DNA from: Betaproteobacteria bacterium
GTDB lineage: Bacteria; Pseudomonadota; Gammaproteobacteria; Burkholderiales; Usitatibacteraceae
DNA length: 64,000 nt
Direction: 5' to 3'
Assembly: GCA_016791265.1 (NCBI GenBank)
Contig: JAEUMY010000004.1
Coordinates: forward strand, 240,215 to 304,214
In this document: piece after piece, positions 6,686 to 46,801 of the stretch
Layout: each line of letters begins with the position of its first letter
Position numbering within the stretch: the first letter of the stretch is position 1
Program-made: the position numbers and the translations under genes
Notes under the pieces: model-generated
What the model saw: the letters and a program-made list of their open reading frames with translations, nothing else
Told to the model about the DNA's origin: nothing
Databases searched by the model: none

Positions 6686-6711
6686 TGAACCCCCGCGTGC
6701 TCGGCCACGAC
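6686..6711 (+). promoter_or_regulatory. ECF-type promoter, exact motif (sigma operon)
   Basis: TGAACC (6686-6691), 16 bases, CGAC (6708-6711), 32 bases before the sigma ATG. Suggests that the sigma operon is autoregulated. Confidence 0.75.
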
Positions 6712-6742
6712 ACAGGGCAAACCCTGTCTTGTCTTGGCCGCC

Positions 6743-7291
6743 ATGGAAGACCTTTTGCGCAGAATCGCCGGCCGGGACGAGGCGGCCTTGGAACAACTCT
6801 ATCGCCAGATGGCGCCGCGCGTATACGCCTTCGCCCAGCGGCGGCTGGAGAACAGCGCGGGGGCGGATGAGGTGGTGTCGGAAACGTTCTTCGAGGTGTG
6901 GCGGCAGGCTGACAAGTTCCGCGGTGAGGCGCAGGCCTCCACGTGGATTCTCGGCATCGCGCGTCACAAGCTCCTCGACAAACTTCGCAAGCTCTCAAGA
7001 CAGGAGTTGACGGAGTGGGATGAGGAGGCCTTGCAAATTGCCGACCCCGCCCCGGAAACCTTCGAGCGCATCGCCGCGCGACAACGTGCCGAGCACATCG
7101 CCCACTGCCTGGGCAATCTGCCGCCGGCCCAGCGCGAATGCATGCACTTGGTTTTTTTTGAAGGCCTGGCACTGGCCGATGTGGCGACGCTACAGCAGTG
7201 TCCGGAGAACACGGTGAAAACCCGGCTGTTCCATGCCCGCCGCAAGATGCGCGATTGCCTGGAGCGCCGACTTGAAAAGGAAAGCCCATGA
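6743..7291 (+). CDS. ECF RNA polymerase sigma factor (copy 1)
   Basis: Extracytoplasmic-function sigma-70 factor of 182 residues. Region 2 contains DEVVSETFFEVWRQADKFRG and the TWILGIARHKLLDKLRK segment. Region 4 holds the helix-turn-helix LALADVATLQQCPENTVKTRLFHARRKMR. Both regions are nearly the same as in the second sigma at 43.9-44.5 kb, so the two may read the same promoters. A TTG at 6734 in frame could extend it by three codons; the ATG at 6743 is preferred, though no strong ribosome site is seen. It overlaps the anti-sigma gene by ATGA. Confidence 0.93.
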   Translation: MEDLLRRIAGRDEAALEQLYRQMAPRVYAFAQRRLENSAGADEVVSETFFEVWRQADKFRGEAQASTWILGIARHKLLDKLRKLSRQELTEWDEEALQIADPAPETFERIAARQRAEHIAHCLGNLPPAQRECMHLVFFEGLALADVATLQQCPENTVKTRLFHARRKMRDCLERRLEKESP

Positions 7292-7899
7292 ATCCTGGTG
7301 AAGACCATGATGAAGCCGCCTTGTTGCTGCCGTGGCATGTCAATGGCACGCTGGACCAGGCTGCGCGTTCTCGCGTGATGCTGGCGCTCGCCGCTTCGCC
7401 CGCGCTTCGCGCGGAGGCGGGCTGGCTGTCCGCGCTGCAGGTGCAGCTGCGAGCGGCCACGCCACACGCGGACCCTGAGCCGGCCTGGGACCGCTTGCGC
7501 CAACTCATCGCGGCCGAACGCCAGGGAAAACTCGTACCACTCTCATCGCGCCGAACCTGGCACGCGCCCAAGACCTGGGTGCCGCTCGCCATGGCGGCAA
7601 CATTGGTGCTGGGCGTCTTCGTCGGCGTCATGCACCAGCGCCATGTCGATGACATCACGCCGCTTTCCGAACGGCGGGCGGGCCCCGGCCACACATTCAT
7701 TCAGGTCACGTTCAAGCCGTCGGCGACGGAGGGCGAGATTCGCCGTCTCGTGCATGCGATCAATGCCGAAATCGTTTCCGGACCGGGTGCGTTGGGCGTG
7801 TACACCTTCCGTGTGCCGTCGCCCAAGGCAGCTGCGGCACTCGATGCACTGCGCGCCAGACGAGACCTGGTGGAAACCGCCACACTGGTGAAACCGTGA
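7288..7899 (+). CDS. membrane anti-sigma factor with protease-prodomain-like periplasmic region
   Basis: Probable anti-sigma factor for the sigma gene it overlaps. The 203-residue protein has an N-terminal cytosolic part (residues 1-88) whose start LLLPWHVNGTLD resembles anti-sigma zinc-finger domains but lacks the usual HxxxCxxC. One membrane helix follows (about 92-112), then a periplasmic domain of about 85 residues. That domain (FIQVTFKPSATEGEIRRLV ... LGVYTFRVPSPKAAAALDAL) looks like the N-terminal prodomain of secreted subtilases (fervidolysin/I9 type). The next gene is such a subtilase, overlapping by GTGA. Function is inferred from position and topology. Confidence 0.8.
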   Translation: MNPGEDHDEAALLLPWHVNGTLDQAARSRVMLALAASPALRAEAGWLSALQVQLRAATPHADPEPAWDRLRQLIAAERQGKLVPLSSRRTWHAPKTWVPLAMAATLVLGVFVGVMHQRHVDDITPLSERRAGPGHTFIQVTFKPSATEGEIRRLVHAINAEIVSGPGALGVYTFRVPSPKAAAALDALRARRDLVETATLVKP

Positions 7900-10049
7900 A
7901 CATCACCGCATCATGCGGCGCCACGCTCGCCTCGGCCCTGCTCGCCGCGGCCCTCAGCGCATCGGCCATCGCCGCCGATGACAGCAAGAGCGCCGATCGG
8001 CCCGAGTGCAAAGACAGTGTGCCCAGCCGGGATCGGCCACGCGATTGCCCGCCCGCCAAATCGGCGGCTGCGTCCGCGAACCGGGATCCACCCGCAAGTC
8101 GAGCGCCGGGCGCCGGCGCAACTTCACCGCAGCCCGGCACGCCAGCCACACCGCCGGATCGTGTCGCGTCGCCACCCACCGCGAGTCCGCCGCCCGCTGC
8201 GCAGTCACCTGCTTCCAATCCACCTCCCCCGCTCACGACAGTCCCGCCCGCCGCGCCACCGCTCAGGAACACACGGTCGGCAACCCCACCCTTGAGCCCG
8301 CCCGCAACCGCGGCACCTTCCGCCCCGAACGTGTCGGCACCTGCCGCCAGGTCGGCTTCACCCTCAGCACCCGCCCCCGCTTCCCCACCACCGAGCGGGC
8401 CAGCAGGGCGCAGCGACGCGACGCCTCCTGCCGGCGAGTCGCGAGCCGGCACGCCGGAGGGTTCGAACTCAAGCGAGCGCCGCGCGGCGCCATCCCCTGC
8501 TACGCCACGCGAGACGACAACATCGCGCGAGGTGACACCGAGCGAGCGCCGGCCAGCAATGCAAGTGAACCCGCGTGAATCACTGCCAGACCCGTCGCGT
8601 CACACAGGGCGCGATGGCGGACTCGACGGCGGCCGAAACCGTACCGCCTCACCTCCCGCCGCGCGCGGACCCTCCGGCAGCGAACGACGGCCTGATGTTG
8701 ATTTCTCTCGAGTGCCATCGTCACCTGAGAACACGACCCGGACTCCGGCGATGTCCCTCCCGTCTGCGCCGCGCGCCGCGCCAACTCTGCCACCGCCGGC
8801 CATGTTCGCGCCAGCGCCCATCACCAGCGTGACTCCGCCGCCAGCCCTCATCCGGCCCGTGGAGCCGAGCAACCTACCCACAAGCGTCGCGCCGACGCCT
8901 GAGCCGCCGGGAGTCGCGACGCACCCACACGCGAGCGCCCCGCCTAAGAACGCATCCAAGAACCCGGCTGTGACCGTCGAGCCCGGTCAGGTGGTGCTGT
9001 TCTTTGCGACCGATGCCGAGGCGGAGCGCGCCCTCGCCGCATTGCCCCCAGGCAGCGCCCGCGTCGTCGACCGCGCACGCCTCGCCACACTCGGGGGCCA
9101 GGTGGTGACGCTCAAGTCGGCAAGCCATGCCGACGCCGCGCGTCTGCAAGAGCAGCTTCGCTTGCGGCTGCCGGACACGCCGAGCGACTTCCACTCACGC
9201 TATACGGCCTTTGGCGCGACCCGTCTCTATCACGCCGCGCAGATGCGGCTGCCGCCGCAAGATCCGGTTGCGAATATTCGCATCGGGATGGTGGATACCG
9301 CCGTGTCTGACCTTCCCGCATTCAAGGGCGCAAAGCTGTTCCGGCGACGATTTCTCGCGCCGGACGAGCGCGATGCGTCCGCGGGTCACGGCACCGCGAC
9401 GGCGGCGCTGCTCGTCGCCGAGTCAATGCCCAATGGATTCTCCGGCGTGGCGCGGGGCGCGACGCTGCTGGCGGCCAATGTCTTCCATCAGGTGGACGAT
9501 GCCGCAGTCACCAACACGGCGAGTCTGGCTCGCGCCCTCGACTGGCTGGCCGAGGAGAACACGCGGGTCATCAATCTGAGCCTAGGCGGCTCGGGTGATC
9601 GCATCATGGCGGAGATCGTGCGCCGGCTGCTGGATCGAGGCATCGTGCTGGTGGCCGCGGGCGGCAATGGCGGACCCGAAGGCACGCCTGTCTTCCCGGC
9701 CGCCTATCCGGGCGTGATCGCCGTCGCGGCGGTGGACGCCTCCGGTCAAGCGTATGCCAATGGCACGCGCGGCGCCTATCTCGCCATCGCGGCGCCGGGG
9801 GTGGACCTCTGGGTGCCTGACAGCGAAGTCGGACGCTATGTGACCGGCACATCGCATGCCGCCGCCCTCGTGGCAGGTGTTGCCGCCCGCCTCATTGCGC
9901 AGCACCGTGAGTTGACCGCATCGCAAGTGCGAGAGCATCTCTGCCGCTCGGCCCTTGATCTGGGCCCACCGGGCACCGACTCGGTATTCGGCTGCGGTCT
10001 GCTGCAGTGGCCGGCCTCCTCGCCCATCATGGTCGAGTCGCGCCGATAG
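7896..10049 (+). CDS. secreted S8 subtilisin-like serine protease with proline-rich linker
   Basis: Exported protease of 717 residues starting at a GTG that overlaps the anti-sigma stop. Signal peptide (about 1-27), then a low-complexity Pro/Ala/Ser stretch to about residue 370, then a small domain (VVLFFATDAEAERALAALP) of prodomain character. The S8 catalytic domain follows with Asp467 (GMVDTAV), His498 (GHGTA), oxyanion Asn591 (AGGNGG) and Ser653 (GTSHAAA). All four are intact, so it should be active. Two Cys near the C-terminus may bond. The operon sigma / anti-sigma / protease suggests that the protease is output and possibly sensor of the pathway. The linker could span the cell wall or surface layer. 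Confidence 0.92.
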   Translation: MNITASCGATLASALLAAALSASAIAADDSKSADRPECKDSVPSRDRPRDCPPAKSAAASANRDPPASRAPGAGATSPQPGTPATPPDRVASPPTASPPPAAQSPASNPPPPLTTVPPAAPPLRNTRSATPPLSPPATAAPSAPNVSAPAARSASPSAPAPASPPPSGPAGRSDATPPAGESRAGTPEGSNSSERRAAPSPATPRETTTSREVTPSERRPAMQVNPRESLPDPSRHTGRDGGLDGGRNRTASPPAARGPSGSERRPDVDFSRVPSSPENTTRTPAMSLPSAPRAAPTLPPPAMFAPAPITSVTPPPALIRPVEPSNLPTSVAPTPEPPGVATHPHASAPPKNASKNPAVTVEPGQVVLFFATDAEAERALAALPPGSARVVDRARLATLGGQVVTLKSASHADAARLQEQLRLRLPDTPSDFHSRYTAFGATRLYHAAQMRLPPQDPVANIRIGMVDTAVSDLPAFKGAKLFRRRFLAPDERDASAGHGTATAALLVAESMPNGFSGVARGATLLAANVFHQVDDAAVTNTASLARALDWLAEENTRVINLSLGGSGDRIMAEIVRRLLDRGIVLVAAGGNGGPEGTPVFPAAYPGVIAVAAVDASGQAYANGTRGAYLAIAAPGVDLWVPDSEVGRYVTGTSHAAALVAGVAARLIAQHRELTASQVREHLCRSALDLGPPGTDSVFGCGLLQWPASSPIMVESRR
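9270..9281. repeat. GCGAATATTCGC palindrome, perfect copy
   Basis: In the subtilase gene; encodes ANIR a few residues before the catalytic Asp467. Confidence 0.9.
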
Positions 10050-10092: not shown

Positions 10093-10118
10093 AGAACCAT
10101 GAGGCGCTTTCGCCCGAC
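10093..10118 (+). promoter_or_regulatory. ECF-type promoter, one mismatch
   Basis: AGAACC, 16 bases, CGAC. Lies 145 bases before the gene at 10264, farther than the other sites. Confidence 0.45.
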
Positions 10119-14098: not shown

Positions 14099-14124
14099 GT
14101 CGGCGACGCCGCATCGGTGGTTCA
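14099..14124 (-). promoter_or_regulatory. ECF-type promoter, exact motif
   Basis: On the minus strand: TGAACC (14124-14119), 16 bases, CGAC (14102-14099). Its -35 is one arm of a perfect 10-bp inverted repeat (14115-14124 / 14137-14146) shared with the divergent promoter. Confidence 0.75.
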
Positions 14125-14136: not shown

Positions 14137-14162
14137 TGAACCACCGCGCCGCGCCGCGCGAC
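14137..14162 (+). promoter_or_regulatory. ECF-type promoter, exact motif
   Basis: TGAACC (14137-14142), 16 bases, CGAC (14159-14162), only 8 bases before the ATG at 14171, so the transcript would be almost leaderless. Confidence 0.7.
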
Positions 14163-16041: not shown

Positions 16042-19000
16042 ATGCTCATCGCCAAAGTCGCCGTGCCACGCCGACTCCATGGTGTGGCACGGGAGCGGCT
16101 AAGTCTTCAACTCCACACCACCCGCGCACGGGTGGTGTGGATGGGTGCGCCGCCCGGCGCGGGCAAGACCACGCTCGCGGCCATGCATATCGGCAGCTTG
16201 GGTGCGACGCGCCGAACCGCCTGGCTTCAGGTGGACGGCGAGGACGCCGATCCGACAGCACTGTTCCAGAATCTGCGCCTGGCCGCCTTGGCGGCGTGCG
16301 GCCGCCGCAAGGTGGCGCTGCCTGTGGCGGACCCCGCGCAACACATCGATGATCGAACATTCGCGCGCCGCTTCGCGCGCCAACTATTCATCGCACTGGG
16401 GGACGGCGGGTCATTGGTACTCGACAATCTGCAGGAAATTTCGGGCGTCGGCGCGGAGAACCTGATTGCGGCATTGGCCGAGGAAGTGCCGGAAGGATCC
16501 AGGTTGTTGCTGCTGAGCCATCTTCCGCCACCAGCAGTGCTGGCGCCGTTCGCCGCCAGACGGCATGTACTCGTGCTGGATGCGGAGGATCTGCGATTGG
16601 ACAGCGGCGAGACGCGCTCGCTGCATGCAAGCCTGGGGGCACGCGGTGGTTGGACGCCAGAGCAATTGCACGCCCTGTCGCAAGGCTGGGCCGCGGGCGT
16701 GGTCCTGCTGGCCAACGCGCCGGCCCCCCGCGCAAGCACCGATGAGAGAGTGGTCGATGCCAGCGTGCGCGGCGCCGCCATGCTGTTCGACTATTTCGCC
16801 GGCGTCGTGGTGGGCGCGCTCTCACCGCGCTGCGTGGAAATCCTCCGAGTCGCGGCATTGCTGCAGGCGCCGCGGCCGGACGCGATCAACGCGGTCACTG
16901 GCGGCACTGACGCCGAACGCTGGCTTGAGCATGTGCGGGCACGCGGCTTGTTCCTGGATCGCCGAGACGCGCCGGGCGAGCACGCCACCTGGTCCATGCA
17001 TCGCTTGCTCAAGGTCTTTCTGCGTGAAGAGGCGGAGCGTGATCTGCCCGCGGCCGCTTGGCTGAACCTCAAACAAGCCGTCGCCCGTCAGGAAGCGGCC
17101 GACGGCCAGATCGAGAATGCCATCAGTCTCTGGTGCGACGTTGGCCTGCACGCCGAGGCCGAGAAAGCGCTGCTGCATGCGGCGCCTGCGCTGGCGCGCG
17201 GCGGGCGCCTCAAGCTCATCATTGACCTTTCCGATCTTCTGGGTGCGGAGCGCGTGGGCCGTTCCGCATGGCTCAGCTACTGGCGCGGTCTCGCGCTGGT
17301 TCACGGCGACGAGCGCCTCGCGTTGACCGCACTGGAGTGCGCTCATCGGCTGCACGAAGCCGCGGGCGACCCGCTGGGGCAGCTTCTGGCATCAGCCGCA
17401 ATCTGCGAATTCACGGTGCAGCACTTCAGCCAATTCCACGGCTTCGAAGCATGGCGTGACCGCATGGAATCCCTCTATCACCCGGCCCTGCCTTTCGCCG
17501 ATGCCGAGCAAGAGCTGCGCGCGCTGACGGGGCTCCTCGCCGCCGGCCTCATGCTGGAACCCGATTCGCGACGCCTCGAGTCTGTTGTCGCGCGCTGCGA
17601 ACAATTGCTACGCATCGAGGGGATCGACCCCAACCAGCGCGTGGCGGCAGCGACCCTGATGATCACGGCATTCGATCAGTTTCCCGGCCAGGAGGCACGC
17701 GCCCGCGCATTCATTCAGCTGGTCACAGCCGCCGCGCAATCGCCCGGCGTGTCCGAGCTGCGGCGCGCATCGTGGCTGTGCTGGCTGTCTGCGTTTCACC
17801 TTCAAGCGTACAAGTTCCATTTGCGCGGACCTGACGCCCTCAAGGCTTGCCGGCGAAGTCTGGAGGAGCTCAAGATCATCGCCGAGGTCAACGGATTCAC
17901 CGAAGCTCGCTTCATTCACGAATGGCTGTCCGCCGATCTCGACATGTTCGCGGGCGACCTCGCCAGTGCGGAGCAGCGTCTGCGTTTGGCTGAGATGCAT
18001 CTGCGACCCGGTCGGCCAGTACTGGCTGTCCACTATCACATGACCCGCGCCATGCTGACGATGCGTCTCGGAAAGATTCGCCAGGCACGCGATCTGGCGC
18101 TGCAGGGTGTGGCCATCGCCATGCACGCTGGCGTTCCCGAAACCGTGGTCTCCGAAGTCCGCTATACCGTCGCACAGCTTCGTCTGCCCATGGGCGAATA
18201 TTCGGAAAGCATGGCTGAAGTAAGGCAAGTGATCGCAGTCGCTCGCCCCGCCTACGTCAAGGTGTACGAAGCCGGGCTCCAGGGGATCGCCGCGCTGGAG
18301 AAACTCTCACTTGGAAAGGACCCGTCCGCCGAACTGACAGCCTACTTCGGCTGGATGCGGGAGAACGATCGGCCCCATGTCCTGCAACTGGTGCCAGGCG
18401 AGGTTGCGAAACTCTGTGTCGCCGCGCTGAGGCGAGGCATCGAAGTCGCGCAAGTGTGCGCGGTGGCTCGCGCCCGCAGCCTTTCCGCGCCCGCCGACGC
18501 GCCGGCGAACTGGCCGTGGCGCGTCGCATTGCGCACATTGGGAGGCTTCGAGCTTCATCTCGATGGTGAACCCTGGCGGCCTGCCGGCAAGCCACAGCGC
18601 AAGCCACTTGATCTCATCAAGGCATTGGCCGCCCGAGACAGAGAGGCCTTCGTCGGCGTGAATGCCCAGCAGCTCGCCGAGGAGCTTTGGCCCGACCTGG
18701 AACTCGAGGACATCCGCGCCAATCTTCACACTACTCTGCACCGGGCGCGCAAACTTCTGGGTAGCGATGCGGCGCTCCTCCACGCGGATGGCCAGCTCTC
18801 CTTTGACCGCGGTCTGGTTTGGTGCGACACCGCCGCGCTGCGCGCCTGCACGGATCGGATGCTCGCATCTCCCGCCAGCGGCGATGATGACGAGTCTGCG
18901 CCGCATACCGGCGCGCACATGGATCCGTCGACGATTCGGCAGCTGGCTTCGGAAATCAACGCGCTGGCGCGCGGCCCGTTCCTGCCTGGCGAGGAGCCAG

Positions 19001-19308
19001 CGTGGGCAGCGTTCGCACGCGAGCGCTGCAACGCCATGCTGGTGACCGCCGTGAAGCGCTGTGCGGCCAGCCTGTCGAGAATTGGCGCGCAAGATGAAGC
19101 GCTCGCCCTGTATGAACGCGGCCTGGCCGACAATCCGCTGATCGAAGCCTTCTATCGCGCCCAGATGCGCATACACCTTGCGCGCGGGGAGCCGTCGGCA
19201 GCGCTTGTCACCTATCGCCGCTGCCGCGAAGCGTTGTCGGTGGTGCTGGGCGTCGCGCCGTCCGCCGAAACCGAGCGCCTGTACCGTCAGGCGCTCCGGC
19301 CCTCATGA
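16042..19308 (+). CDS. giant STAND ATPase / SARP-type transcriptional regulator (copy 1)
   Basis: Cytosolic regulator of 1,088 residues. Walker A GAPPGAGKTT (35-44), a Walker B-like LVLDNL near 130, and the MalT/AfsR style NTPase and helical-repeat region (about 350-800). A winged-helix DNA-binding domain starts near residue 824 (LGGFELHLDGEPW, LAEELWPD), then a bacterial transcriptional activator domain (BTAD) to the end. It lacks the C-terminal LuxR helix-turn-helix of MalT. A paralogue of the same design is at 40595-43804. It lies 73 bases after the Ig-like gene with no terminator, so it is probably co-transcribed with surface-protein genes. Ligand unknown. Confidence 0.9.
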   Translation: MLIAKVAVPRRLHGVARERLSLQLHTTRARVVWMGAPPGAGKTTLAAMHIGSLGATRRTAWLQVDGEDADPTALFQNLRLAALAACGRRKVALPVADPAQHIDDRTFARRFARQLFIALGDGGSLVLDNLQEISGVGAENLIAALAEEVPEGSRLLLLSHLPPPAVLAPFAARRHVLVLDAEDLRLDSGETRSLHASLGARGGWTPEQLHALSQGWAAGVVLLANAPAPRASTDERVVDASVRGAAMLFDYFAGVVVGALSPRCVEILRVAALLQAPRPDAINAVTGGTDAERWLEHVRARGLFLDRRDAPGEHATWSMHRLLKVFLREEAERDLPAAAWLNLKQAVARQEAADGQIENAISLWCDVGLHAEAEKALLHAAPALARGGRLKLIIDLSDLLGAERVGRSAWLSYWRGLALVHGDERLALTALECAHRLHEAAGDPLGQLLASAAICEFTVQHFSQFHGFEAWRDRMESLYHPALPFADAEQELRALTGLLAAGLMLEPDSRRLESVVARCEQLLRIEGIDPNQRVAAATLMITAFDQFPGQEARARAFIQLVTAAAQSPGVSELRRASWLCWLSAFHLQAYKFHLRGPDALKACRRSLEELKIIAEVNGFTEARFIHEWLSADLDMFAGDLASAEQRLRLAEMHLRPGRPVLAVHYHMTRAMLTMRLGKIRQARDLALQGVAIAMHAGVPETVVSEVRYTVAQLRLPMGEYSESMAEVRQVIAVARPAYVKVYEAGLQGIAALEKLSLGKDPSAELTAYFGWMRENDRPHVLQLVPGEVAKLCVAALRRGIEVAQVCAVARARSLSAPADAPANWPWRVALRTLGGFELHLDGEPWRPAGKPQRKPLDLIKALAARDREAFVGVNAQQLAEELWPDLELEDIRANLHTTLHRARKLLGSDAALLHADGQLSFDRGLVWCDTAALRACTDRMLASPASGDDDESAPHTGAHMDPSTIRQLASEINALARGPFLPGEEPAWAAFARERCNAMLVTAVKRCAASLSRIGAQDEALALYERGLADNPLIEAFYRAQMRIHLARGEPSAALVTYRRCREALSVVLGVAPSAETERLYRQALRPS

Positions 19309-21098: not shown

Positions 21099-21125
21099 TG
21101 TCGCGGACAGTGCGCACGAGGTTCA
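21099..21125 (-). promoter_or_regulatory. ECF-type promoter, 17-base spacer
   Basis: Minus strand TGAACC, 17 bases, CGAC, 45 bases before the start at 21054. The only strong site with 17 instead of 16. Confidence 0.6.
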
Positions 21126-21599: not shown

Positions 21600-21625
21600 G
21601 TCTCCGGAACGATTCACCCGGTTCA
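21600..21625 (-). promoter_or_regulatory. ECF-type promoter, one mismatch
   Basis: Minus strand TGAACC, 16 bases, AGAC. Upstream of the gene at 21181-21459. Confidence 0.5.
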
Positions 21626-23217: not shown

Positions 23218-23243
23218 GTCGCTGCGGGTGGTCAGGAGGTTCA
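23218..23243 (-). promoter_or_regulatory. ECF-type promoter, exact motif
   Basis: Minus strand TGAACC (23243-23238), 16 bases, CGAC (23221-23218), 74 bases before the start at 23144. Confidence 0.72.
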
Positions 23244-23269: not shown

Positions 23270-23295
23270 TGAACGCGCTTGCATCTTTGAACGAC
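23270..23295 (+). promoter_or_regulatory. ECF-type promoter, one mismatch
   Basis: TGAACG, 16 bases, CGAC, 43 bases before the ATG at 23339. Forms a divergent pair with the site at 23218. Confidence 0.65.
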
Positions 23296-24226: not shown

Positions 24227-24252
24227 TGAACTTGGCAGCCTGTGCCTCCGAC
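24227..24252 (+). promoter_or_regulatory. ECF-type promoter, one mismatch
   Basis: TGAACT, 16 bases, CGAC, 108 bases before the ATG at 24361. Confidence 0.6.
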
Positions 24253-26850: not shown

Positions 26851-26876
26851 GTCGCGAACTGATTGCGCGCGGTTCA
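26851..26876 (-). promoter_or_regulatory. ECF-type promoter, exact motif
   Basis: Minus strand TGAACC (26876-26871), 16 bases, CGAC (26854-26851), 71 bases before the TTG start, which supports that start. Confidence 0.75.
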
Positions 26877-26911: not shown

Positions 26912-26937
26912 TGAACCCCAATTCCGCCTCATCCGAC
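26912..26937 (+). promoter_or_regulatory. ECF-type promoter, exact motif
   Basis: TGAACC (26912-26917), 16 bases, CGAC (26934-26937), 31 bases before the ATG at 26969. Confidence 0.75.
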
Positions 26938-33213: not shown

Positions 33214-33239
33214 GTCGGCGATGGGGCATTGAAGGTTCA
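33214..33239 (-). promoter_or_regulatory. ECF-type promoter, exact motif
   Basis: Minus strand TGAACC (33239-33234), 16 bases, CGAC (33217-33214), 52 bases before the ATG at 33161. Confidence 0.75.
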
Positions 33240-33347: not shown

Positions 33348-33373
33348 TGAACCACCACCTCACAACGTACGAC
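33348..33373 (+). promoter_or_regulatory. ECF-type promoter, exact motif
   Basis: TGAACC (33348-33353), 16 bases, CGAC (33370-33373), 48 bases before the diguanylate cyclase ATG. The 260-base divergent spacer holds this site and the one at 33214 and nothing else noted. Confidence 0.75.
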
Positions 33374-33421: not shown

Positions 33422-34612
33422 ATGGCTGTTCCAATCCGCCTTCAACGCGTATGGTCCCTGCGGCCCAGCAGGGACGGGAAAGATCTGATTTTTTTGCCTG
33501 ACCGCGCTTTTCCGCCAGACTTGGAGGCGGTGTTTCGCGCACAGCGATGCGAGGCGCTGGCACGCGTCAACGCGGTGTCGGCCTGGCGGGTTGCCATCGG
33601 GCTGCTGCTGTTCGCCACCTGGGACGCCTACCTTGATCCAGACCGGTGGAAGGCTGCATTCGAGTGGCGAGCGCTGGGAGCGCTGGCCCTGCTGGGCCTG
33701 GCATGGCTGCATGAACGCCATGGCACCCCGGCGCGGGCGCCCCTCATGGCCAAGATCGGATTTGCCATCGCCGTGGCCTCGGTGGCGCTGGCGCTCACCG
33801 AGTTGAGCGGCGGTTTTCTATTCGGCCTCGCTGGGCTCGGCGCCGTGCTGTGCGCCGGCGCCTGCGCGGCGCTCGACCGCCGCGACTATCTCTGGCTCAA
33901 CCTTTTACCGGTGACGATCGTGCTGGGCATGCTTTTGCAAAAGGATGGGGAGAGTTTCGTGGTCGTGAACGCACTGTGCGCGCTGACGATATGCCTGTTC
34001 GTTGGCTTCTTGCTCGCGCGCGTGTCCGAGACATCCAACCGCCGCGCCTTCCTGCTGGAGCAGGCGCTGTCGCACGAAGCGCGCACCGACCCGCTGACTG
34101 GCGTCGCCAATCGCCGTGCTTTGGAGGAACACGCGGAGCGTGTATTCAAGGCGGCGGCGCGATCAGGTGAGCCGCTCTCGGTGCTGCTGCTGGATGTCGA
34201 CCACTTCAAGCTCATCAATGACACCCACGGCCATCCCGTGGGCGACACCCTGATCCGCGCAATGGCGGCGGCGCTGCGAGACAGCCTGCGTGGATCCGAT
34301 CTGCTCGGACGTTGGGGTGGTGAGGAGTTCCTCATCCTGCTGCCCGCGACCTCGGGCACGGAAGCCGTGGCCCTGGCCGAGCGCCTGCGTGCGCGACTGG
34401 CGGCGTCCCGCCTGGCGGACACCCCGGAGGTCCACGCCACCGTCAGCCTGGGCGTCGCCTGTACGCAAGGTGGCGCCACGCAGACGACATGGCCGGATCT
34501 CGTGCAGCGCGCGGACGCCGCGCTCTACCGTGCCAAGGCGGCCGGGCGCAACCGCGTCGCCACGGATTTTCCGATCCATGAGAGCAGCCACCTGATACGG
34601 GACGCGCTGTAG
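33422..34612 (+). CDS. membrane diguanylate cyclase (GGDEF)
   Basis: Makes the second messenger cyclic di-GMP from GTP. The 396-residue protein has about five to six membrane helices (residues 55-215), then a linker and a GGDEF domain starting near DPLTGVANRRALE. The active site is GGEEF (299-303), and the product-inhibition RxxD site is intact (Arg290-Asp293). No extra sensor domain; the membrane part would sense. An ECF-type promoter ties cyclic di-GMP production to the surface-protein locus. The small gene at 34646 follows by 33 bases. Confidence 0.93.
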   Translation: MAVPIRLQRVWSLRPSRDGKDLIFLPDRAFPPDLEAVFRAQRCEALARVNAVSAWRVAIGLLLFATWDAYLDPDRWKAAFEWRALGALALLGLAWLHERHGTPARAPLMAKIGFAIAVASVALALTELSGGFLFGLAGLGAVLCAGACAALDRRDYLWLNLLPVTIVLGMLLQKDGESFVVVNALCALTICLFVGFLLARVSETSNRRAFLLEQALSHEARTDPLTGVANRRALEEHAERVFKAAARSGEPLSVLLLDVDHFKLINDTHGHPVGDTLIRAMAAALRDSLRGSDLLGRWGGEEFLILLPATSGTEAVALAERLRARLAASRLADTPEVHATVSLGVACTQGGATQTTWPDLVQRADAALYRAKAAGRNRVATDFPIHESSHLIRDAL

Positions 34613-39793: not shown

Positions 39794-39819
39794 GTCGCGG
39801 CCAGACCAAAACGAGTTCA
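39794..39819 (-). promoter_or_regulatory. ECF-type promoter, one mismatch
   Basis: Minus strand TGAACT, 16 bases, CGAC, 69 bases before the start at 39724. Confidence 0.65.
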
Positions 39820-40551: not shown

Positions 40552-40577
40552 GTCGACATCGCCCGATGCCGGGTTCA
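40552..40577 (-). promoter_or_regulatory. ECF-type promoter, exact motif
   Basis: Minus strand TGAACC (40577-40572), 16 bases, CGAC (40555-40552), 74 bases before the start at 40477. Confidence 0.72.
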
Positions 40578-40594: not shown

Positions 40595-43500
40595 TCAACG
40601 CTCGGAGATCGGGCCCGCCTGTGCCTTGAGCGCATCGCGCAAGGCTTCGGTCTCGGCGGTGGGCGCCACCGAAAGCACCACGGACAGCATGTCGCGGCAG
40701 CGCCGATAGGCGCGCAAGCCCTCCGCGATCTCGCCGCGCGCGAGACAGCAGCGCATGACGCCCCGGTAGATGGGCTCGGCGAGGTTCTCCAAATCGATGC
40801 CGTGCGAGTAAAGCGCCAGCGCACCGGCGGTGTCGCCGCCGTTTTCAAGTCCGCGCCCGGCGTCGATGACGGTTTCGATGAACCGTGCGCGCAATCGCTC
40901 GCGGCTGGCCATCGCCCAAGCCGCCACTTCACCCGAAAGCGGTGCGCCCCGATACAGGTCAATGGCCCGGCGAAAATCGGATGCCGGCAACTGGCCCTCG
41001 CGCAGGCGCCGCACCGTCCGTTCCCACTGAGCCGCGTCCGTCCAGACCAAATCCGCCGACAGTGACACCTTGCCGTCCGTCACGAACAGCGCGTTGTCCA
41101 CTGCCAGCAACTTGCGCAAACGATGCAAGGCGATGTCGAAACTCGCGCGCGGGTCTTCCGCGTTCGGGTCCGGCCACAAGTCCTCGACAATCTGTTCGAT
41201 GGGGATGCCCTCATAGCACGCCCTGCCTGACACGGCCAGGTACTTGAGAATGTCGAGCGGCTTTTTCGGCGTCTTGTGCGCGGGCGTCCAGACCTGGCCG
41301 TGGACCTCCACCGACCAGTTGCCGAGAACGCGCAGTCGGATCGGCCAGGGCCATTGCTCCGGCGCATCGGTCGCAGGCGGGCGAAAGCCGCGAATGCGGA
41401 TCATTTCGGTGACGAAAGGCACCTCGATGCCCGCGTCCAGCGCGGCCACGCACGCATCGGCGATTTCGGGCGCCATGAGCATGCCCGTCCTCAGACCGCG
41501 GATCCGTTTCAGTTCGGCGAAAAACGCGCCAAGCTGATCCAGCTTGTCAGGGTGGTCACCCAGCAGCGCCTGGCGCAGCTTGAAGAGAGGACGCGCGGAA
41601 AGATAGGCTTTGGCATGCCCCGGAGGCGCATGGGCAATGGCGCGCTCGGCGCTGGCTTCCGCGCCGGCGTAGTCGCTCAGCCGGAATCGTGCCGTCGCCG
41701 CAAGCCAGTGATGAAACGCCATGCCGGCCGGGGGAAGGCCGGCGCGCTCGCCAAAGTCCAACCCGGCCTGGACATCCGCCATGGCATCCTCGACCCGATT
41801 CATGGCGAGGAGAATCATGCAGCGCTTCTGGTGAAAGCTCGCGGCGACATAGGGATGGCGCGCGGACAGGTACGATCGCGCCTCTTCCACTGCCGCGAGC
41901 GCTTCGTCGTAGCGAGTCTGGCGCCAGCGCAAGTCCGCCTGACGCAACTTGATTTGCGCGAGGATGTCCTGGAATTCGCAGGTCTCGGCGATCCGAAGCG
42001 CCTCGGTCACGTGACGCTCGCTCTGTCTCAGCAGGCTGTCACCAAGGTCCTCAACCGATGCGTACCAGAGGAAGATCGCCACGGCGAGAAAGGTGCGGGC
42101 ACGCCTGTACTCGGTGACGCGCGGATCGGCGGCCAACTCGATCATGAGCTGGCACACCGGCATGCCCCGGTGGTAAGAACCCATGTCATGATGATGCTCA
42201 AGCAGCATCGCCCCCGATACGAGCTGCATCCGCGGGTCCACCACGGGATTGCTCAGCAGCACTTCAAGCCGGGTTGCGGCATGCGCCGCCGGGATCGGCT
42301 CGATGTCGCAATGGATGTTCGCGGCAAGCGCCGCGGACATCGCGGCGATTTCGAAATTCGGGTCCGGGAATACGAAGTTGCCCGCGTGGAATTCGCGCAT
42401 CTTCTCGGCCCAGGGTTGCAATTCGTGCAGCGCACGCTCGTACAATGCCGCCGCCAAGGCGGTCGAAGCGGCGCTCATGAAGGCGACGAACCGATCACCG
42501 GCTTCGAGTGCCAGCGCGTGGCTGTGCTTGAAAGCGGCGAAGGCGGCGGCGGCATCACTGTGCGCGTGGGCCACGCCCAGCCAGTAATAGAGCCAGCGGC
42601 TGTGCTCCGCGCCTTCGCCGGCTGAAAGAAGGGTGCCGATGATCTCGGCCAACTCGGCATCCCGTCCCGCCGGCAACATCACGACCACGGCCTCGAGAAT
42701 GACTGTCTCGGCGCGACGGAGGTCATCACAGGCGATGAAGAGTTTCACCGCGGCGGCAGGGTTTCCCATCCTGGCTTCGATTTCGGCGGCGCGCTGTTGC
42801 AACGCCCGGAAATCCTCTTCGCTGCACTCGGACGCCAGGCGCGCCGAGAGGAAGCGCGAGAACAGCGGGTGCAGTTGGTACCACTCGCCGCCCTTCGCGA
42901 TCCTCCGATCGACGAACAGGTTGCGTGCCATGAGGGTCTGCAAAAGCGCTGCCGCCGAATGATCGGCCGCCATCTCGACAGCGGCAAGACTGGTGAAGCG
43001 ACTCAACAACGAGATTCTCTCCAGCGCCTTCCTGCCATCGGCGTCCAGATTCTCGAATACCTGCCGGGCGAAGTAGGCGAACAGGTCCTCTTCGGCCGCG
43101 GCCCGCCACGCATCGACGGAGGTTCCGGCGGCCTGCGCCAGCAACGTGATGCCGGCGGCCCAGCCATCCGCCTCGCGGCAGAGCTGGTCGGCAGGGCCAG
43201 AAACCCCCATCATCGCCAGAAGCGAGGCAGTCTCGTCGGCGGAAAACTGCAGTGAGCCCGCATCCATCAAGTGCAGCGCCCCGCGCATCCTCATTGCCGT
43301 GAAGGCCGGTGGCGCCGGTTCGCGACTGGTGATCAGAATGGTCACGTGCGCGCCAGCCTCCGCGCAAAGCACGGGCAGCAATTCCGCGAGCGGTGAAGCG
43401 CCGATCTCGTGAAAGTCCTCCAGCACCAGCAGAGAGTCTTCGCGCAAGGCGGCGAACATCAGCCGGCTGAAACGCCGAACGAACGCCGGCAGGTCCGGCG

Positions 43501-43804
43501 CCGCCAAGTCTGGCATCGGCAGCGTGCGCACCAGCCGCGGCAGGGCCATGCGCAGATACTCGAGAAACACGGCGGGATTGCGGTCGTCGGCGTCGAGTTG
43601 CACCCACAGGCGATCACCGCGCCGGGTCTCGGACAATCTGGCGGCGAACAGGGTCTTCCCTGAGCCGGGGCGTCCGTGTATCCATATGACACGCGCGTCG
43701 GACCCTGCCACGGCGGCCAGAAGCCGCTGACGCGGGACGATCCACTTGCGTGTCGGAGGAGTGAGTTTTGCCGGCAGCGCCTTGCGCTTGCGAATATTCG
43801 CCAT
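40595..43804 (-). CDS. giant STAND ATPase / SARP-type transcriptional regulator (copy 2)
   Basis: A 1,069-residue paralogue of the regulator at 16042. Walker A HGRPGSGKTL (43-52), Walker B-like LLVLEDF, arginine/helical segments through a TPR-like region (about 330-790), a winged helix starting near residue 815 (LRVLGNWSVEVHGQVW, IVEDLWPD) and a C-terminal BTAD (CCLARGEIAEGLRAYRRCRD). No LuxR helix-turn-helix. Codons 2-5 are a palindrome copy, so the N-terminus reads MANIR. No ECF-type promoter upstream. It probably activates specific genes of the locus upon ligand binding. Confidence 0.9.
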   Translation of the reverse strand: MANIRKRKALPAKLTPPTRKWIVPRQRLLAAVAGSDARVIWIHGRPGSGKTLFAARLSETRRGDRLWVQLDADDRNPAVFLEYLRMALPRLVRTLPMPDLAAPDLPAFVRRFSRLMFAALREDSLLVLEDFHEIGASPLAELLPVLCAEAGAHVTILITSREPAPPAFTAMRMRGALHLMDAGSLQFSADETASLLAMMGVSGPADQLCREADGWAAGITLLAQAAGTSVDAWRAAAEEDLFAYFARQVFENLDADGRKALERISLLSRFTSLAAVEMAADHSAAALLQTLMARNLFVDRRIAKGGEWYQLHPLFSRFLSARLASECSEEDFRALQQRAAEIEARMGNPAAAVKLFIACDDLRRAETVILEAVVVMLPAGRDAELAEIIGTLLSAGEGAEHSRWLYYWLGVAHAHSDAAAAFAAFKHSHALALEAGDRFVAFMSAASTALAAALYERALHELQPWAEKMREFHAGNFVFPDPNFEIAAMSAALAANIHCDIEPIPAAHAATRLEVLLSNPVVDPRMQLVSGAMLLEHHHDMGSYHRGMPVCQLMIELAADPRVTEYRRARTFLAVAIFLWYASVEDLGDSLLRQSERHVTEALRIAETCEFQDILAQIKLRQADLRWRQTRYDEALAAVEEARSYLSARHPYVAASFHQKRCMILLAMNRVEDAMADVQAGLDFGERAGLPPAGMAFHHWLAATARFRLSDYAGAEASAERAIAHAPPGHAKAYLSARPLFKLRQALLGDHPDKLDQLGAFFAELKRIRGLRTGMLMAPEIADACVAALDAGIEVPFVTEMIRIRGFRPPATDAPEQWPWPIRLRVLGNWSVEVHGQVWTPAHKTPKKPLDILKYLAVSGRACYEGIPIEQIVEDLWPDPNAEDPRASFDIALHRLRKLLAVDNALFVTDGKVSLSADLVWTDAAQWERTVRRLREGQLPASDFRRAIDLYRGAPLSGEVAAWAMASRERLRARFIETVIDAGRGLENGGDTAGALALYSHGIDLENLAEPIYRGVMRCCLARGEIAEGLRAYRRCRDMLSVVLSVAPTAETEALRDALKAQAGPISER
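43790..43801. repeat. GCGAATATTCGC palindrome, perfect copy
   Basis: Directly after the start codon of the second large regulator; codons 2-5. Confidence 0.9.
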
Positions 43805-43900: not shown

Positions 43901-44509
43901 CTACACGATTTGAAGCGCGCCCATCCGCACCGGGCCGCCCTCGGCACTCTCGATCCACTCCCTCAGTTTGCGCCGCGCGTGAAACAAGCGAGTCTTCACC
44001 GTGTTCTCAGGCACGCCCTGAATGGCGGCGACCTCGGAGAGAGCCAGTTCATTGAAGAAGACGAGCTGGATGCATTCACGCTGTTCCACCGGCAGGCGAG
44101 CGAGATGGCGGCGCAGTTCCGCCGCGTCACTTTCGCGAGCCATGGCGTCGGCGGCGGATTCGCCAGGGCCGGGCACTGTTTCGGCCACCATGTTCCAGTA
44201 GTCGCTGTCCATGAGGACATGATTGCGCGCACGCACCTTGTCAAGCGCCTTGTGCCGCGCGATACCCAGGATCCAGGTGGTGGCCTTGGATTCGCCGGCG
44301 AAGCGTCCGGCGTGACGCCAGACTTCGTGAAAGGTCTCAACCACAACGTCCTCGGCGTCGCTTTCGTTGGAGAGGAACTGCAACGCGAACGCGAACACGC
44401 TGCGCTGCTGGCGACGATACAGCTCCTCCAGCGCGGAGTCCTCGCCGGCGGCGACGCGCGTCAGCAAGCCCTCGGCGGTTATTTCCGACAGTGCTTGGCG
44501 GCTTTGCAT
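43901..44509 (-). CDS. ECF RNA polymerase sigma factor (copy 2)
   Basis: A 202-residue sigma factor. Region 2 has DAEDVVVETFHEVWRHAGRF and TWILGIARHKALDKVR; region 4 has LSEVAAIQGVPENTVKTRLF followed by HARRKLR. The region 4 recognition helix is almost identical to copy 1, predicting the same -35. No anti-sigma is adjacent; the 62-residue gene ten bases upstream is its only co-transcribed partner. The ATG at 44509 is the first that gives a normal length; the ORF itself stays open far upstream. Confidence 0.92.
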   Translation of the reverse strand: MQSRQALSEITAEGLLTRVAAGEDSALEELYRRQQRSVFAFALQFLSNESDAEDVVVETFHEVWRHAGRFAGESKATTWILGIARHKALDKVRARNHVLMDSDYWNMVAETVPGPGESAADAMARESDAAELRRHLARLPVEQRECIQLVFFNELALSEVAAIQGVPENTVKTRLFHARRKLREWIESAEGGPVRMGALQIV

Positions 44510-44519: not shown

Positions 44520-44708
44520 CTAGCGTTTGGCGCGCGGTTGCCGTGCGCGACCGCGACGCCGCGATGCCGGGTTTTCCAGCGCGGCCAGCAGCTCTTCGGG
44601 ATTGTGGAAGGCAACCCGCTGACCTGTGGCGGCAACCTCGACCGTGCCCACCGGCCCGGGCCCCTCCGGCTCGGGCCGACGATAGATGCGAACAATGAAA
44701 CTTTCCAT
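44520..44708 (-). CDS. small conserved-looking protein before sigma copy 2
   Basis: A 62-residue protein MESFIVRIYRR... with a basic, RNA/DNA-binding-like tail (RRRGRARQPRAKR) and AFHNPEELLAAL. Short proteins of this type occur beside regulatory genes in betaproteobacteria. It could modulate the sigma factor, but that is a guess. AGGGA upstream of the ATG. Confidence 0.65.
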   Translation of the reverse strand: MESFIVRIYRRPEPEGPGPVGTVEVAATGQRVAFHNPEELLAALENPASRRRGRARQPRAKR

Positions 44709-44783
44709 GCTGGTTTCCCTGAAAGGATCGTTGCGCCAGCATAGAAAGCGCCGAGCGACCACCGGCTTACCGATGTCTTACGG

Positions 44784-44810
44784 ATCGCAAATTTTCCGCC
44801 CGTTGATTCA
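44784..44810 (-). promoter_or_regulatory. weak ECF-like site before the sigma copy 2 operon
   Basis: Minus strand TGAATC, 17 bases, CGAT: two mismatches and a longer spacer. Listed because it is the only similar sequence before this sigma operon. Confidence 0.25.
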
Positions 44811-44816
44811 CCGGAT

Positions 44817-44842
44817 TGAACCGCACCCGCCCGCCCGACGAC
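44817..44842 (+). promoter_or_regulatory. ECF-type promoter, exact motif
   Basis: TGAACC (44817-44822), 16 bases, CGAC (44839-44842), 41 bases before the ATG at 44884. Confidence 0.75.
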
Positions 44843-44883
44843 TGACCCTCGGTTCAAAGACAAGCAGCCAGCACGGGGGCGCA

Positions 44884-46752
44884 ATGGGGAAACATCGGGG
44901 AACATTTCGGAATCACGCCGGGTCGACCGGCGGCGGGACAGCCGGATGCGATTCAAGGTCAGCGCTCTCGCGCACCTTGATCGGTATCGCGTGCAGTGCG
45001 GCCATGCTGTCACTGGCCCAGACTCCGACAACGCCTGCACCGACGAATCCGTCGGGGAACCCTCCCCAAGACGGCAACGCCGAGGCGCTCCGCGCCTTCC
45101 AGCGCCAAGCCGGCGATCAAGCGCCCACATTGGCGAAAGATGAAGCCGGGAACATCAAGCTCGAGTGGCGCGGCTCGCTCAGTCTGGATGCCTACCGCAA
45201 CGACGTCACTCCACCGCCGGGTCAGGCCGCATTCGCCTCCCCGTTCGCAACGGGCACGCGTGAACGCACCGTCTTCACCACGGAAATCCGCTTGGTCGAG
45301 CCGAACGGCGCGGCCATGTTCTTGCAAGCGGGCAGCATGTTCAGCAATGACCGCGCGGTGCTTTCACGCTATCCCAGCCAGCTGAGTCAGCTACAGGCCG
45401 GGCGCACCACAGCACGCCAAAACCTGACCGTCGGCGATGTGGTTGCCAATTATTCAGGGTTGGGTACCAGCCTCGGCATGCGCGGCTTGGCGCTCACGCA
45501 GCGCCTGGGAGACTTCAGCCTGTCGGCCCACGCTGGCAAAGTCGCGGAAAGCTGGGATGCACTCCTCAATCGCAAGCCCATCGATGGCGGCAACAGCCGC
45601 AATCAATATCTGCGCAACGTGTTTGGATTGAAGGGCGAATATTCGCACTCGCCGCAATTGCGCAGCTACGTAACCTGGCAGTCCTTTGACGACAGCAAAG
45701 GTTCGCTCCCGGAGGCGCTGGCGACCGCAGCGACGGCGCACACGGTCGCAGCGAGCGGCGGTTTCGCCTGGCAGGGCGAAACCACGACACTCGCCGGCGA
45801 GCTGGCCCGGTCCAGCTTTCACCGCGAACAGCTGGCGGAACGACGCGCGGACGCCTTCGTGCTCGACGGCACCTGGCGGGTCAACACGCTGTCGCTACGC
45901 GCGGGCTATCACGAAGTCGACGCCGACTTCGTGTCCTTGGCCCAGTCCGTACCGCCCGGCGTGCGCGAAGGGTACGTCGGCTTCGATTGGCCGGCCACGA
46001 CTTGGCTCAGCGTCGGGGCGGACTGGCGCGATGCGCTCACGCGCTATGCCATGCCGACACTGCCACCCGTCGACGACAGCGCGTTCGCGTTGTTGCCGCC
46101 GCCGCTGGCGCCGGAGCCCACCTTGGCGCGCGGCTTCAATACGCGAGCGACCATCAATTTCGGCCCTTCGTGGCCCGGCTGGAATCTCTCCATCCAGAAC
46201 GCGGAGACCGCCAACGGCACCGTATCGGGCATCACCGGCCGGGGGCGCAACACCAACATCACCCTGTCGTTCGCGGCCAAGGGCTGGAACGGCAGCCTGA
46301 CCTTGGGCGACGGCTTCAACCGACAAACCGGCAACCCGGCCGGTGATTCGACGATGGAGAGCATCCAGTTCCAGGCGGGCCGCAGCTTCGTGCATGCGGA
46401 CCGCGGCGGCACACCCCTGTTGACGCTTACCGTGTCAGGCATGGCCGGGCGCCAGACGCAGCGTCTGCCAACGATGGGCAATCGCACCGACAGCACCCAG
46501 TACGGCCTCGTCCTGGCCGGCCAGCATCGCCGATTCGGTCAACTCAATCTGCAGTGGAACGACGCCGTGCTGACCCAACCCTTGGGCGGACCTGATCTCG
46601 TCACACGCACCCTGCAGTTCGACTTCACTCACCCGTTCGGCGCCCAACGGGCACTGAAAGCCTACCTGCGCCATGTTCGCCGCAACATGGGTGCGCCGCA
46701 ATTGGAAACCACGGAAAAACTGGGTGGCGTGCAACTGAGCCTGACCTGGTGA
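44884..46752 (+). CDS. outer-membrane beta-barrel protein
   Basis: A 622-residue exported protein. Starting at the ATG at 44884 the leader is long (hydrophobic core LIGIACSAAMLSLAQ, about residues 38-52). Then a short Pro-rich stretch, and from about residue 90 a succession of amphipathic strands with aromatic girdles (YVTWQSFDD, LRAGYHEVDADF, YVGFDWPATTWLSVGADW, AYLRHVRRNM). The last residue is Trp in LSLTW, the signature recognised by the BAM machinery. No POTRA or plug domain, so neither a two-partner translocator nor a TonB receptor. It probably serves as export pore or anchor for the FecR protein encoded next. Confidence 0.8.
   Translation: MGKHRGTFRNHAGSTGGGTAGCDSRSALSRTLIGIACSAAMLSLAQTPTTPAPTNPSGNPPQDGNAEALRAFQRQAGDQAPTLAKDEAGNIKLEWRGSLSLDAYRNDVTPPPGQAAFASPFATGTRERTVFTTEIRLVEPNGAAMFLQAGSMFSNDRAVLSRYPSQLSQLQAGRTTARQNLTVGDVVANYSGLGTSLGMRGLALTQRLGDFSLSAHAGKVAESWDALLNRKPIDGGNSRNQYLRNVFGLKGEYSHSPQLRSYVTWQSFDDSKGSLPEALATAATAHTVAASGGFAWQGETTTLAGELARSSFHREQLAERRADAFVLDGTWRVNTLSLRAGYHEVDADFVSLAQSVPPGVREGYVGFDWPATTWLSVGADWRDALTRYAMPTLPPVDDSAFALLPPPLAPEPTLARGFNTRATINFGPSWPGWNLSIQNAETANGTVSGITGRGRNTNITLSFAAKGWNGSLTLGDGFNRQTGNPAGDSTMESIQFQAGRSFVHADRGGTPLLTLTVSGMAGRQTQRLPTMGNRTDSTQYGLVLAGQHRRFGQLNLQWNDAVLTQPLGGPDLVTRTLQFDFTHPFGAQRALKAYLRHVRRNMGAPQLETTEKLGGVQLSLTW
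45635..45646. repeat. GCGAATATTCGC palindrome, perfect copy
   Basis: In the barrel gene; encodes EYS of GEYSHS. Confidence 0.9.
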
Positions 46753-46775
46753 ACCGCCCCGCAATGGCAGGGCAA

Positions 46776-46801
46776 TGAACCCTCTCACGCGGGACTTCGA
46801 C
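46776..46801 (+). promoter_or_regulatory. ECF-type promoter, exact motif
   Basis: TGAACC (46776-46781), 16 bases, CGAC (46798-46801), 32 bases before the ATG at 46834. Confidence 0.75.

What the first reader, a model, noticed from the sequence alone, without database searches (positions are those of the whole stretch)
6686..46801. A contiguous 40-kb ECF-sigma regulon: TGAACC-N16-CGAC before nearly every unit
Read by eye on both strands, 11 places have exactly TGAACC, 16 bases, CGAC: 6686(+), 14099(-), 14137(+), 23218(-), 26851(-), 26912(+), 33214(-), 33348(+), 40552(-), 44817(+), 46776(+). Four more have one changed base (10093, 21600(-), 23270, 24227), one has TGAACT (39794(-)) and one has spacer 17 (21099(-)). 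All lie 8-145 bases before a start codon, in the right direction, at divergent and single promoters. Ten fixed bases over both strands of 64 kb give about 0.1 chance hits. A GAAC-type -35 with a short -10 at 16-17 bases is the shape of ECF promoters, and two ECF genes lie in the stretch; one is itself preceded by the motif. None was found in the flanks. This defines a regulon of surface proteins, proteases, a diguanylate cyclase, PI-PLC and a FecR protein that, to my knowledge, is not described as one system.
Basis: partly seen in the sequence, partly recalled or inferred. Interest (0 to 1): 0.95.

Follow-up and report, generated by a model that had tools for sequence, protein, structure and literature searches.

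The report
One-sigma regulon of secreted proteins
Seventeen copies of one two-part DNA signal, all lying between genes and all pointing into the next gene, fill a 40-kb stretch of a bacterial chromosome; they are likely promoters of one kind of sigma factor encoded there, which would switch on a whole set of mostly secreted proteins together, probably under the control of a partner protease and a second regulator.

Summary
TGAACC-N16-CGAC occurs 12 times exactly in the window (0.21 expected), all in 6686-46801; the whole genome has 31. All 17 lie in gaps between my called genes and point into the next gene.

The motif belongs to a wide clade of ECF sigma factors. In 80 related loci it is strongly enriched at spacing 16, and it (variants allowed) precedes the sigma gene in 40 of 70 loci with the clade's anti-sigma, 0 of 10 without.

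Two layers emerge. (1) ECF1, an anti-sigma with a propeptide-like outer domain, and a protease gene that is a subtilase (28 of 55) or a caspase (16 of 55), never both. (2) A second ECF operon without such a site, preceded by a heptamer repeat like a SARP-LAL operator, with SARP-LAL-like genes nearby.

Transcription, binding and cleavage are untested. The published ECF classification was not readable here, so the group may already be catalogued.

The parts
6686..6711 (+). exact site before the ECF1-anti-sigma-subtilase operon (autoregulatory position)
6743..7291 (+). ECF1 sigma factor (182 aa)
   Evidence: Pfam Sigma70_r2 6e-17, Sigma70_r4_2 2.7e-12
7288..7899 (+). anti-sigma factor: N-terminal LLPWxVNGTL part, one hydrophobic helix, C-terminal domain 134-203 like a subtilase propeptide
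7896..10049 (+). subtilase (S8): signal peptide by eye, Pro-rich linker, S8 domain 487-701
   Evidence: Pfam 7.7e-33
10093..10118 (+). site, one mismatch (AGAACC)
14099..14124 (-). exact site, divergent pair
14137..14162 (+). exact site, divergent pair; start codon only 8 bases on
16042..19308 (+). SARP-LAL-like regulator (MalT-like ATPase, C-terminal BTAD)
21100..21125 (-). exact site (reader: 21099, spacer 17)
21600..21625 (-). site, one mismatch
23218..23243 (-). exact site, divergent pair
23270..23295 (+). site, one mismatch (TGAACG), divergent pair
24227..24252 (+). site, one mismatch (TGAACT)
26851..26876 (-). exact site, divergent pair; the one exact site without the A after CGAC
26912..26937 (+). 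exact site, divergent pair
33214..33239 (-). exact site upstream of the M48 peptidase region (32033-32788, -); first start codon unclear
33348..33373 (+). exact site before MASE8-GGDEF protein (33422-34612, +)
39794..39819 (-). site, one mismatch (TGAACT), before an 810-aa protein with a signal-peptide-like start
40552..40577 (-). exact site before a 179-aa protein with a signal peptide by eye
40595..43804 (-). SARP-LAL-like regulator downstream of ECF2
   Evidence: BTAD 1.7e-14; MalT-like
43901..44509 (-). ECF2 sigma factor (202 aa)
   Evidence: Pfam Sigma70_r2 1.4e-14
44520..44708 (-). conserved 62-aa ORF just upstream of ECF2
44766..44783 (-). heptamer direct repeat CCGTAAG-N4-CGGTAAG, predicted SARP-LAL operator of the ECF2 operon
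44817..44842 (+). exact site before the outer-membrane barrel gene
44884..46752 (+). predicted 26-stranded outer-membrane beta-barrel (622 aa)
46776..46801 (+). exact site before the FecR-domain protein
46834..49785 (+). FecR-domain protein with a signal-peptide-like start (983 aa)
   Evidence: Pfam 1.8e-10; homologues directly behind the same motif in two relatives

Best explanation
The 17 TGAACC-N16-CGAC sites in 6686-46801 are likely promoters read by the ECF sigma factor encoded at 6743-7291, and probably also by its paralogue at 43901-44509, so that the cluster would act as one regulon of mostly secreted and surface proteins. Shown by sequence: the sites, their placement and direction, the motif before the sigma gene itself in many relatives and before homologues of several of these proteins, and the ECF1-anti-sigma-protease order. 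Inferred (about 0.9): ECF1 binds -35 TGAACC and -10 CGAC and starts at or near the conserved A. Inferred (about 0.6): ECF2, whose DNA-binding segments are nearly the same, shares the sites. Inferred (about 0.5): the membrane anti-sigma holds ECF1 until its propeptide-like outer domain meets the secreted protease encoded beside it, which makes or permits the first cut, and the freed sigma raises more sigma, anti-sigma and protease. Inferred (about 0.55): the ECF2 operon is switched on separately, by a SARP-LAL-like ATPase binding the heptamer repeat upstream of it; one such gene sits downstream of ECF2, which would close a second loop.
For: Enrichment: 12 against 0.21; 12 of 31 genome matches in 1% of the genome. 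Held-out A: 11 of 12 against 2 of 18 (18 of the 19 outside matches had a locus). Matrix from relatives (core positions set by the pattern that collected the sites): top 17 window hits are the 17 sites. Spacing: in the 26 best loci, 43 matches at spacing 16 against 0-4 at each of 14 other spacings; in the other 54, 49 against 0-8. Before the sigma gene within 200 bases, variants allowed: 40 of 70 loci with this anti-sigma, 0 of 10 without (three loci hold less than 200 bases upstream); exact motif in 28 of 80. Family of 28 genomes: 5 with the ECF have 8, 9, 13, 5 and 2 TTGAACC-N16-CGAYNNA matches; of 23 without, 18 have 0, four have 1, one has 6; reversed pattern 10 in all 28. Same motif directly before homologues of four window target genes in G004, G013 or G026. 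Protease slot: of 55 loci with the anti-sigma and over 3.5 kb downstream, 28 S8, 16 C14, 0 both, 11 neither; C14 confirmed by Pfam in 4 of 4 tested. Anti-sigma outer domain: PF22148 in 7 of 37 members at E up to 1; 6 of the top 10 structural rows are subtilisin propeptides or POIA1. Heptamer operator: 21-base pattern twice in the own genome, both before an ECF2-type operon (1 for the reversed pattern), and in 3 of 13 others, those with that operon.
Against: No expression or binding data. G020 has 6 motif matches but neither this ECF nor this anti-sigma. The reversed window has two hits scoring 17.8 and 16.1. In G026 (86% complete) only an ECF2-type gene and a fragment of the anti-sigma with a stop were found, yet motifs persist, which favours ECF2 or a gap in the assembly. 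The propeptide-like domain is kept where the neighbour is a caspase, so it may not be a subtilase partner; its window copy is below the Pfam cut-off (E 0.075), Foldseek gives no match at 0.001, and its fold ties with other ferredoxin-like folds. The 18-base heptamer pattern with one mismatch is at control level, and the longer patterns were drawn from the sites themselves. The own genome's second cluster at C17 has an ECF2-type gene but no TGAACC-CGAC sites beyond variants. Signal-peptide-like starts are common in flank genes too, 6 of 17.
Confidence: 0.85

Rival explanations
1. ECF2, not ECF1, is the working sigma for the surface genes; ECF1 mainly drives its own operon and the two regulons only overlap.
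For: ECF2 is divergent from the barrel gene with the motif between them, also in G026 and, by position, G013; in G004 a SARP-LAL-like gene lies between. G026 keeps motifs although only an ECF2-type gene was found there.
Against: The motif stands before sigma genes that have the anti-sigma and not before those without: 40 of 70 against 0 of 10. G027 and G043, with one close ECF each, show variant motifs. The own genome's C17 cluster has an ECF2-type gene with almost no motifs.
Confidence: 0.3
2. The sites are operators of a DNA-binding regulator rather than sigma-factor promoters.
For: Direction and spacing alone would fit an asymmetric operator; no start sites are mapped.
Against: Two blocks at one fixed spacing, a conserved A where an ECF start would lie, placement before the ECF gene in several phyla, and tracking of the ECF gene in the family with one exception.
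Confidence: 0.07
3. The heptamer repeat before ECF2 is bound by an OmpR/PhoB-type response regulator, not by a SARP-LAL-like protein.
For: Such regulators also use direct repeats of about one helical turn (recalled); the repeat itself is.
Against: SARP-LAL operators are heptamers with 4-base spacers, consensus CGGCAAG (PMC5930380, passages); SARP-LAL-like genes are found in 5 of 28 family genomes, including all four that hold the 21-base operator.
Confidence: 0.35
4. The propeptide-like outer domain of the anti-sigma is an ordinary ferredoxin-like sensor, and the protease genes are plain regulon members that do not act on it.
For: The anti-sigma is found with either S8 or C14 neighbours and in loci with neither; structural matches tie with unrelated folds.
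Against: A protease follows the anti-sigma within 3.5 kb in 44 of 55 loci, one family or the other and never both; propeptide profile hits in 7 of 37.
Confidence: 0.4

Closest known systems
ECF sigma / membrane anti-sigma pairs (RpoE-RseA, SigW-RsiW, SigK-RskA)
   Same: Two-domain ECF, adjacent one-helix anti-sigma, autoregulatory -35/-10 motif; best solved relative of ECF1 is M. tuberculosis SigK, 4nqw, E 2.4e-23
   Different: Anti-sigma ends in a propeptide-like domain; an S8 or C14 protease gene often follows; the strict motif matches of the genome are nearly all (11 of 13) inside one gene cluster
SARP-LAL regulators such as PimR (PMC5930380, passages read)
   Same: BTAD plus large ATPase; paired heptamers with 4-base spacers before a further regulator gene (pimM for PimR, the ECF2 operon here)
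   Different: Order is ATPase first and SARP part last; target is an ECF operon in a proteobacterium; binding not tested
Subtilase propeptides and POIA1-type inhibitors
   Same: Fold of anti-sigma residues 134-203, weak profile match
   Different: Carried by an anti-sigma, not by the protease; found also beside caspases
ECF54, proposed to be controlled by proteolysis (PMC8999054, passages read)
   Same: Subtilase and CHAT-domain genes in the neighbourhood
   Different: ECF54 is described there as lacking an anti-sigma; here there is one
FecI-FecR cell-surface signalling
   Same: A FecR-domain protein lies in the cluster
   Different: The FecR-domain protein is a 983-aa target with a signal-peptide-like start, not the anti-sigma next to the ECF
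26-stranded barrel of the Mtr complex (6r2q chain B; MtrB, name recalled) and FimD ushers
   Different: No Pfam match (688-aa open frame) and no CXXCH in the called window proteins

Membership tests
ECF sigma factor (ECF1, ECF2) | Sigma region 2 and region 4, no region 3 match | tested here: met
ECF regulon | Shared two-block promoter motif, also before the sigma gene | tested here: met
   sequence only:
ECF regulon | Transcription of the units depends on the sigma | not testable with these tools
   needs RNA or run-off data
A numbered ECF group of the 2021 classification | Match to the group's model and catalogued motif | not testable with these tools
   paper not held
Membrane anti-sigma factor | Gene directly after the ECF gene | tested here: met
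   window; 70 of 80 loci by a profile built from 36 of them and the window
Membrane anti-sigma factor | Anti-sigma domain profile in the window's own copy | tested here: inconclusive
   NCBIfam antisigma 1.4e-10 but below cut-off; zf-HC2 in 26 of 37 members at E up to 1, not the window's
Subtilase propeptide | Profile and fold match of anti-sigma residues 134-203 | tested here: inconclusive
SARP-LAL regulator (16042-19308, 40595-43804) | BTAD plus MalT-like ATPase | tested here: met
   BTAD above cut-off; MalT profile 2.1e-27 and 3.8e-40, below its cut-off
SARP-LAL regulator (16042-19308, 40595-43804) | SARP part at the N terminus | tested here: not met
   BTAD at 961-1083 and 940-1059, ATPase part first
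SARP-LAL regulator (16042-19308, 40595-43804) | Winged-helix DNA-binding part before BTAD | tested here: inconclusive
   16042 protein against EmbR E 0.0036; 40595 protein nothing at 0.1
SARP-LAL operator | Two or more heptamers with 4-base spacers | tested here: met
   sequence only; binding untested
ECF54 | No anti-sigma | tested here: not met
FecI-FecR signalling | FecR-type anti-sigma next to the ECF | tested here: not met
   gene after ECF1 has no FecR match at 0.01; the FecR domain is in 46834-49785
MtrB porin | Family profile and a multihaem cytochrome partner | tested here: not met
   no Pfam family at 0.01, no CXXCH in called window proteins

The most novel reading that the evidence does not exclude
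A self-contained two-layer switch for an extracellular proteome: a protease (subtilase in some lineages, caspase in others) frees ECF1 by acting on an anti-sigma that wears a protease propeptide as its outer domain, while a SARP-LAL ATPase, through a nearly unique heptamer operator, turns on a second ECF that reads the same promoters; the output includes a new 26-stranded barrel that could export the co-regulated proteins.
Probability: 0.25. Interest if true: 0.82.

Novelty: new variant of a known kind. Interest (0 to 1): 0.66.

Why it matters
It gives a clean, testable promoter code for a widespread ECF clade on which my searches found no paper, treats a set of mostly unannotated secreted proteins as one programme, and makes two questions testable: whether an anti-sigma uses a protease propeptide as its trigger, with the protease class swapped between lineages, and whether SARP-LAL regulation, known from Streptomyces antibiotic clusters, controls a sigma factor in proteobacteria.

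Tried and rejected
Operator instead of promoter: rejected as less likely (spacing, conserved A, tracking of the ECF). Chance or G+C bias: rejected (shuffles, reversed-pattern controls, relatives' matrix). Reading-frame cover as a test of sites in and out of the cluster did not discriminate, because long open frames are common at 63% G+C. MtrB function for the barrel gene: not supported (no profile match, no cytochrome). The heptamer pattern shortened to 18 bases with one mismatch gave control-level counts; exact matches were 6 in 28 genomes, 5 of them before ECF2-type operons and one in G007. The 40595 SARP part found no solved relative. A tree did not make the ECF2-type genes one clade: the window's pairs with C17 (98/90), those of G004, G013 and G026 form another group (100/99), both in an unresolved set of 10 rows with ECF1. 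Literature: the ECF reclassification paper is not held; searches for the motif with ECF, for anti-sigma with subtilase, propeptide or S8, and for caspase listed nothing that I recognised as this system. These cover open-licence full text, some lists were capped (20 of 82 shown, 15 of 34), and most listed papers were not opened. I read found passages of PMC8103513, PMC6180224, PMC3420878, PMC7406223, PMC8999054 and PMC5930380; all others only as listings.
Full report
Observation. TGAACC-N16-CGAC occurs 12 times exactly in the window, against 0.21 in shuffles. The five weaker sites listed are present; nine further one-mismatch hits, three inside the stretch and six in the flanks, are not distinguished from chance. 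The own genome (3.94 Mb, 24 contigs, about 90% complete) has 31 exact matches, 10 for the reversed pattern. The density outside predicts 0.2 for this interval, though the interval was drawn around the hits. Requiring A three bases after CGAC leaves 13 in the genome, 11 of them here, 6 for the reversed pattern; with one mismatch allowed there are 82, against 92 for the control, and 17 of the 82 are here.

Further tests. A matrix from 126 sites in relatives, none from this genome, ranks exactly the 17 listed sites at the top of the window (11.2 bits or more); the next is 9.4 in the flank. Its sites were collected with TGAACC-N16-YGAY, so only the flanking positions are independent, and the reversed window gave two hits above the line, 17.8 and 16.1. 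With eight starts adjusted by hand, 17 of 17 are outside called genes and point into the next gene, in a stretch that is 87% coding. Of the 17 first genes, a crude rule finds signal-peptide-like starts at the likely start of 11, and 40552 adds one by eye; 6 of 17 flank genes also pass, so the contrast is modest.

Who reads the motif. Relatives of ECF1 at 49% identity or more occur in 5 of 60 relatives searched. In 80 named loci found with an ECF alignment (some overlap or are near-identical assemblies), TGAACC-N(n)-YGAYNNA peaks at n=16: 43 in the 26 best loci (other spacings 0-4) and 49 in the other 54 (other spacings 0-8, the 8 at n=15); the reversed pattern gives 0 at 16 in both sets. The motif, variants allowed, stands within 200 bases before the sigma gene in 40 of 70 loci that have this anti-sigma next to it and in 0 of 10 that do not; the exact motif does so in 28 of 80, in Burkholderiales, Rhodocyclaceae, Mesorhizobium, Pseudolabrys, Nitrospira, Bipolaricaulota and others. 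In the family of 28 genomes, the five with the ECF have 8, 9, 13, 5 and 2 strict matches; of 23 without, 18 have none, four have one and G020 has six; the reversed pattern gives 10 in all. G020 is unexplained. G027 and G043 show CGAT and TGAC at -10.

Conserved regulon. Of 11 window genes other than the sigma, anti-sigma, protease, SARP and small-ORF genes that have a hit in the relatives' stretches, four have a homologue directly behind the motif in G004, G013 or G026 (14171, 23339, 36381 and the FecR gene 46834) and a fifth (37292, weak, E 2.4e-5) behind a one-mismatch site; homologues of 14746 and 21181 lie further along a same-strand stretch, the one of 20290 and 21801 has its nearest same-strand sites over 500 bases upstream, and the hits of 19303 and 33422 were not placed.

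The second layer. The ECF2 operon carries no TGAACC site. It starts with a conserved 62-aa ORF, and 57 bases upstream of it lies CCGTAAG-N4-CGGTAAG. The same arrangement stands before the small ORF in five of five loci compared. The 21-base pattern with up to two mismatches occurs twice in the own genome, both at such operons, once for the reversed pattern; a close variant with one mismatch occurs once in G004, once in G013, twice in G026, and in none of 10 other genomes. Both patterns were drawn from these sites. A shorter 18-base form with one mismatch is at control level. Paired heptamers with 4-base spacers, consensus CGGCAAG, are the operators of SARP-LAL regulators such as PimR (PMC5930380, passages). 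SARP-LAL-like genes lie at 16042-19308 and 40595-43804, and such genes occur in 5 of 28 family genomes, including all four with the operator. Domain order is reversed against the Streptomyces proteins, and binding is untested. ECF2-type genes do not form one clade in the tree.

Output. The gene behind 44817 is predicted to be a 26-stranded outer-membrane barrel (model mean pLDDT 76.7 from 12 sequences, residues 1-87 of low confidence), closest by fold to a chain of the Mtr complex and to FimD but without profile match or cytochrome partner. It may be an export pore; that is a guess. The protein search listed ten relatives, the window's own among them, from a capped set of candidates.

Limits. 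Everything is sequence and model. The published ECF group catalogue could not be read, so the clade and its motif may already be listed there; what I did not find in print, is this regulon, the propeptide-like anti-sigma or the protease swap.

Noticed in passing
G000:C17:289001-329000 (L070, L161): A second cluster in the own genome: ECF2-type gene with small ORF and heptamer repeat, SARP-LAL-like gene, FecR protein, secreted proteins, and an anti-sigma-S8 pair preceded by CGAACC-N16-CGAC; otherwise no exact TGAACC-CGAC sites.
   Followed up: partly
44520-44708 (-): Conserved 62-aa ORF (MESF...IYRR) before ECF2-type genes in window, C17, G004, G013, G026; function unknown.
   Followed up: partly
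44884-46752 (+): Rare barrel family, 26 predicted strands; ten relatives listed in the large protein search, the window's own among them.
   Followed up: yes
   Followed up: no
G020, contigs C51, C65, C139, C304, C317: Six strict motif matches without this ECF or anti-sigma.
   Followed up: partly
L146:3433 (+): A heptamer pair CCGTAAG-N4-CCGTAAG in a Mesorhizobium locus.
   Followed up: no
L075:12310-15354, L077:11995-14793, L084:11988-15020: In Rhodanobacteraceae relatives a gene close downstream of the anti-sigma is an Ig-domain autotransporter instead of a protease.
   Followed up: partly
L173 / G026:C475:3751-3963 (-): Fragment of the anti-sigma gene with an in-frame stop, on the opposite strand beside an open ECF2-type gene.
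   Followed up: no
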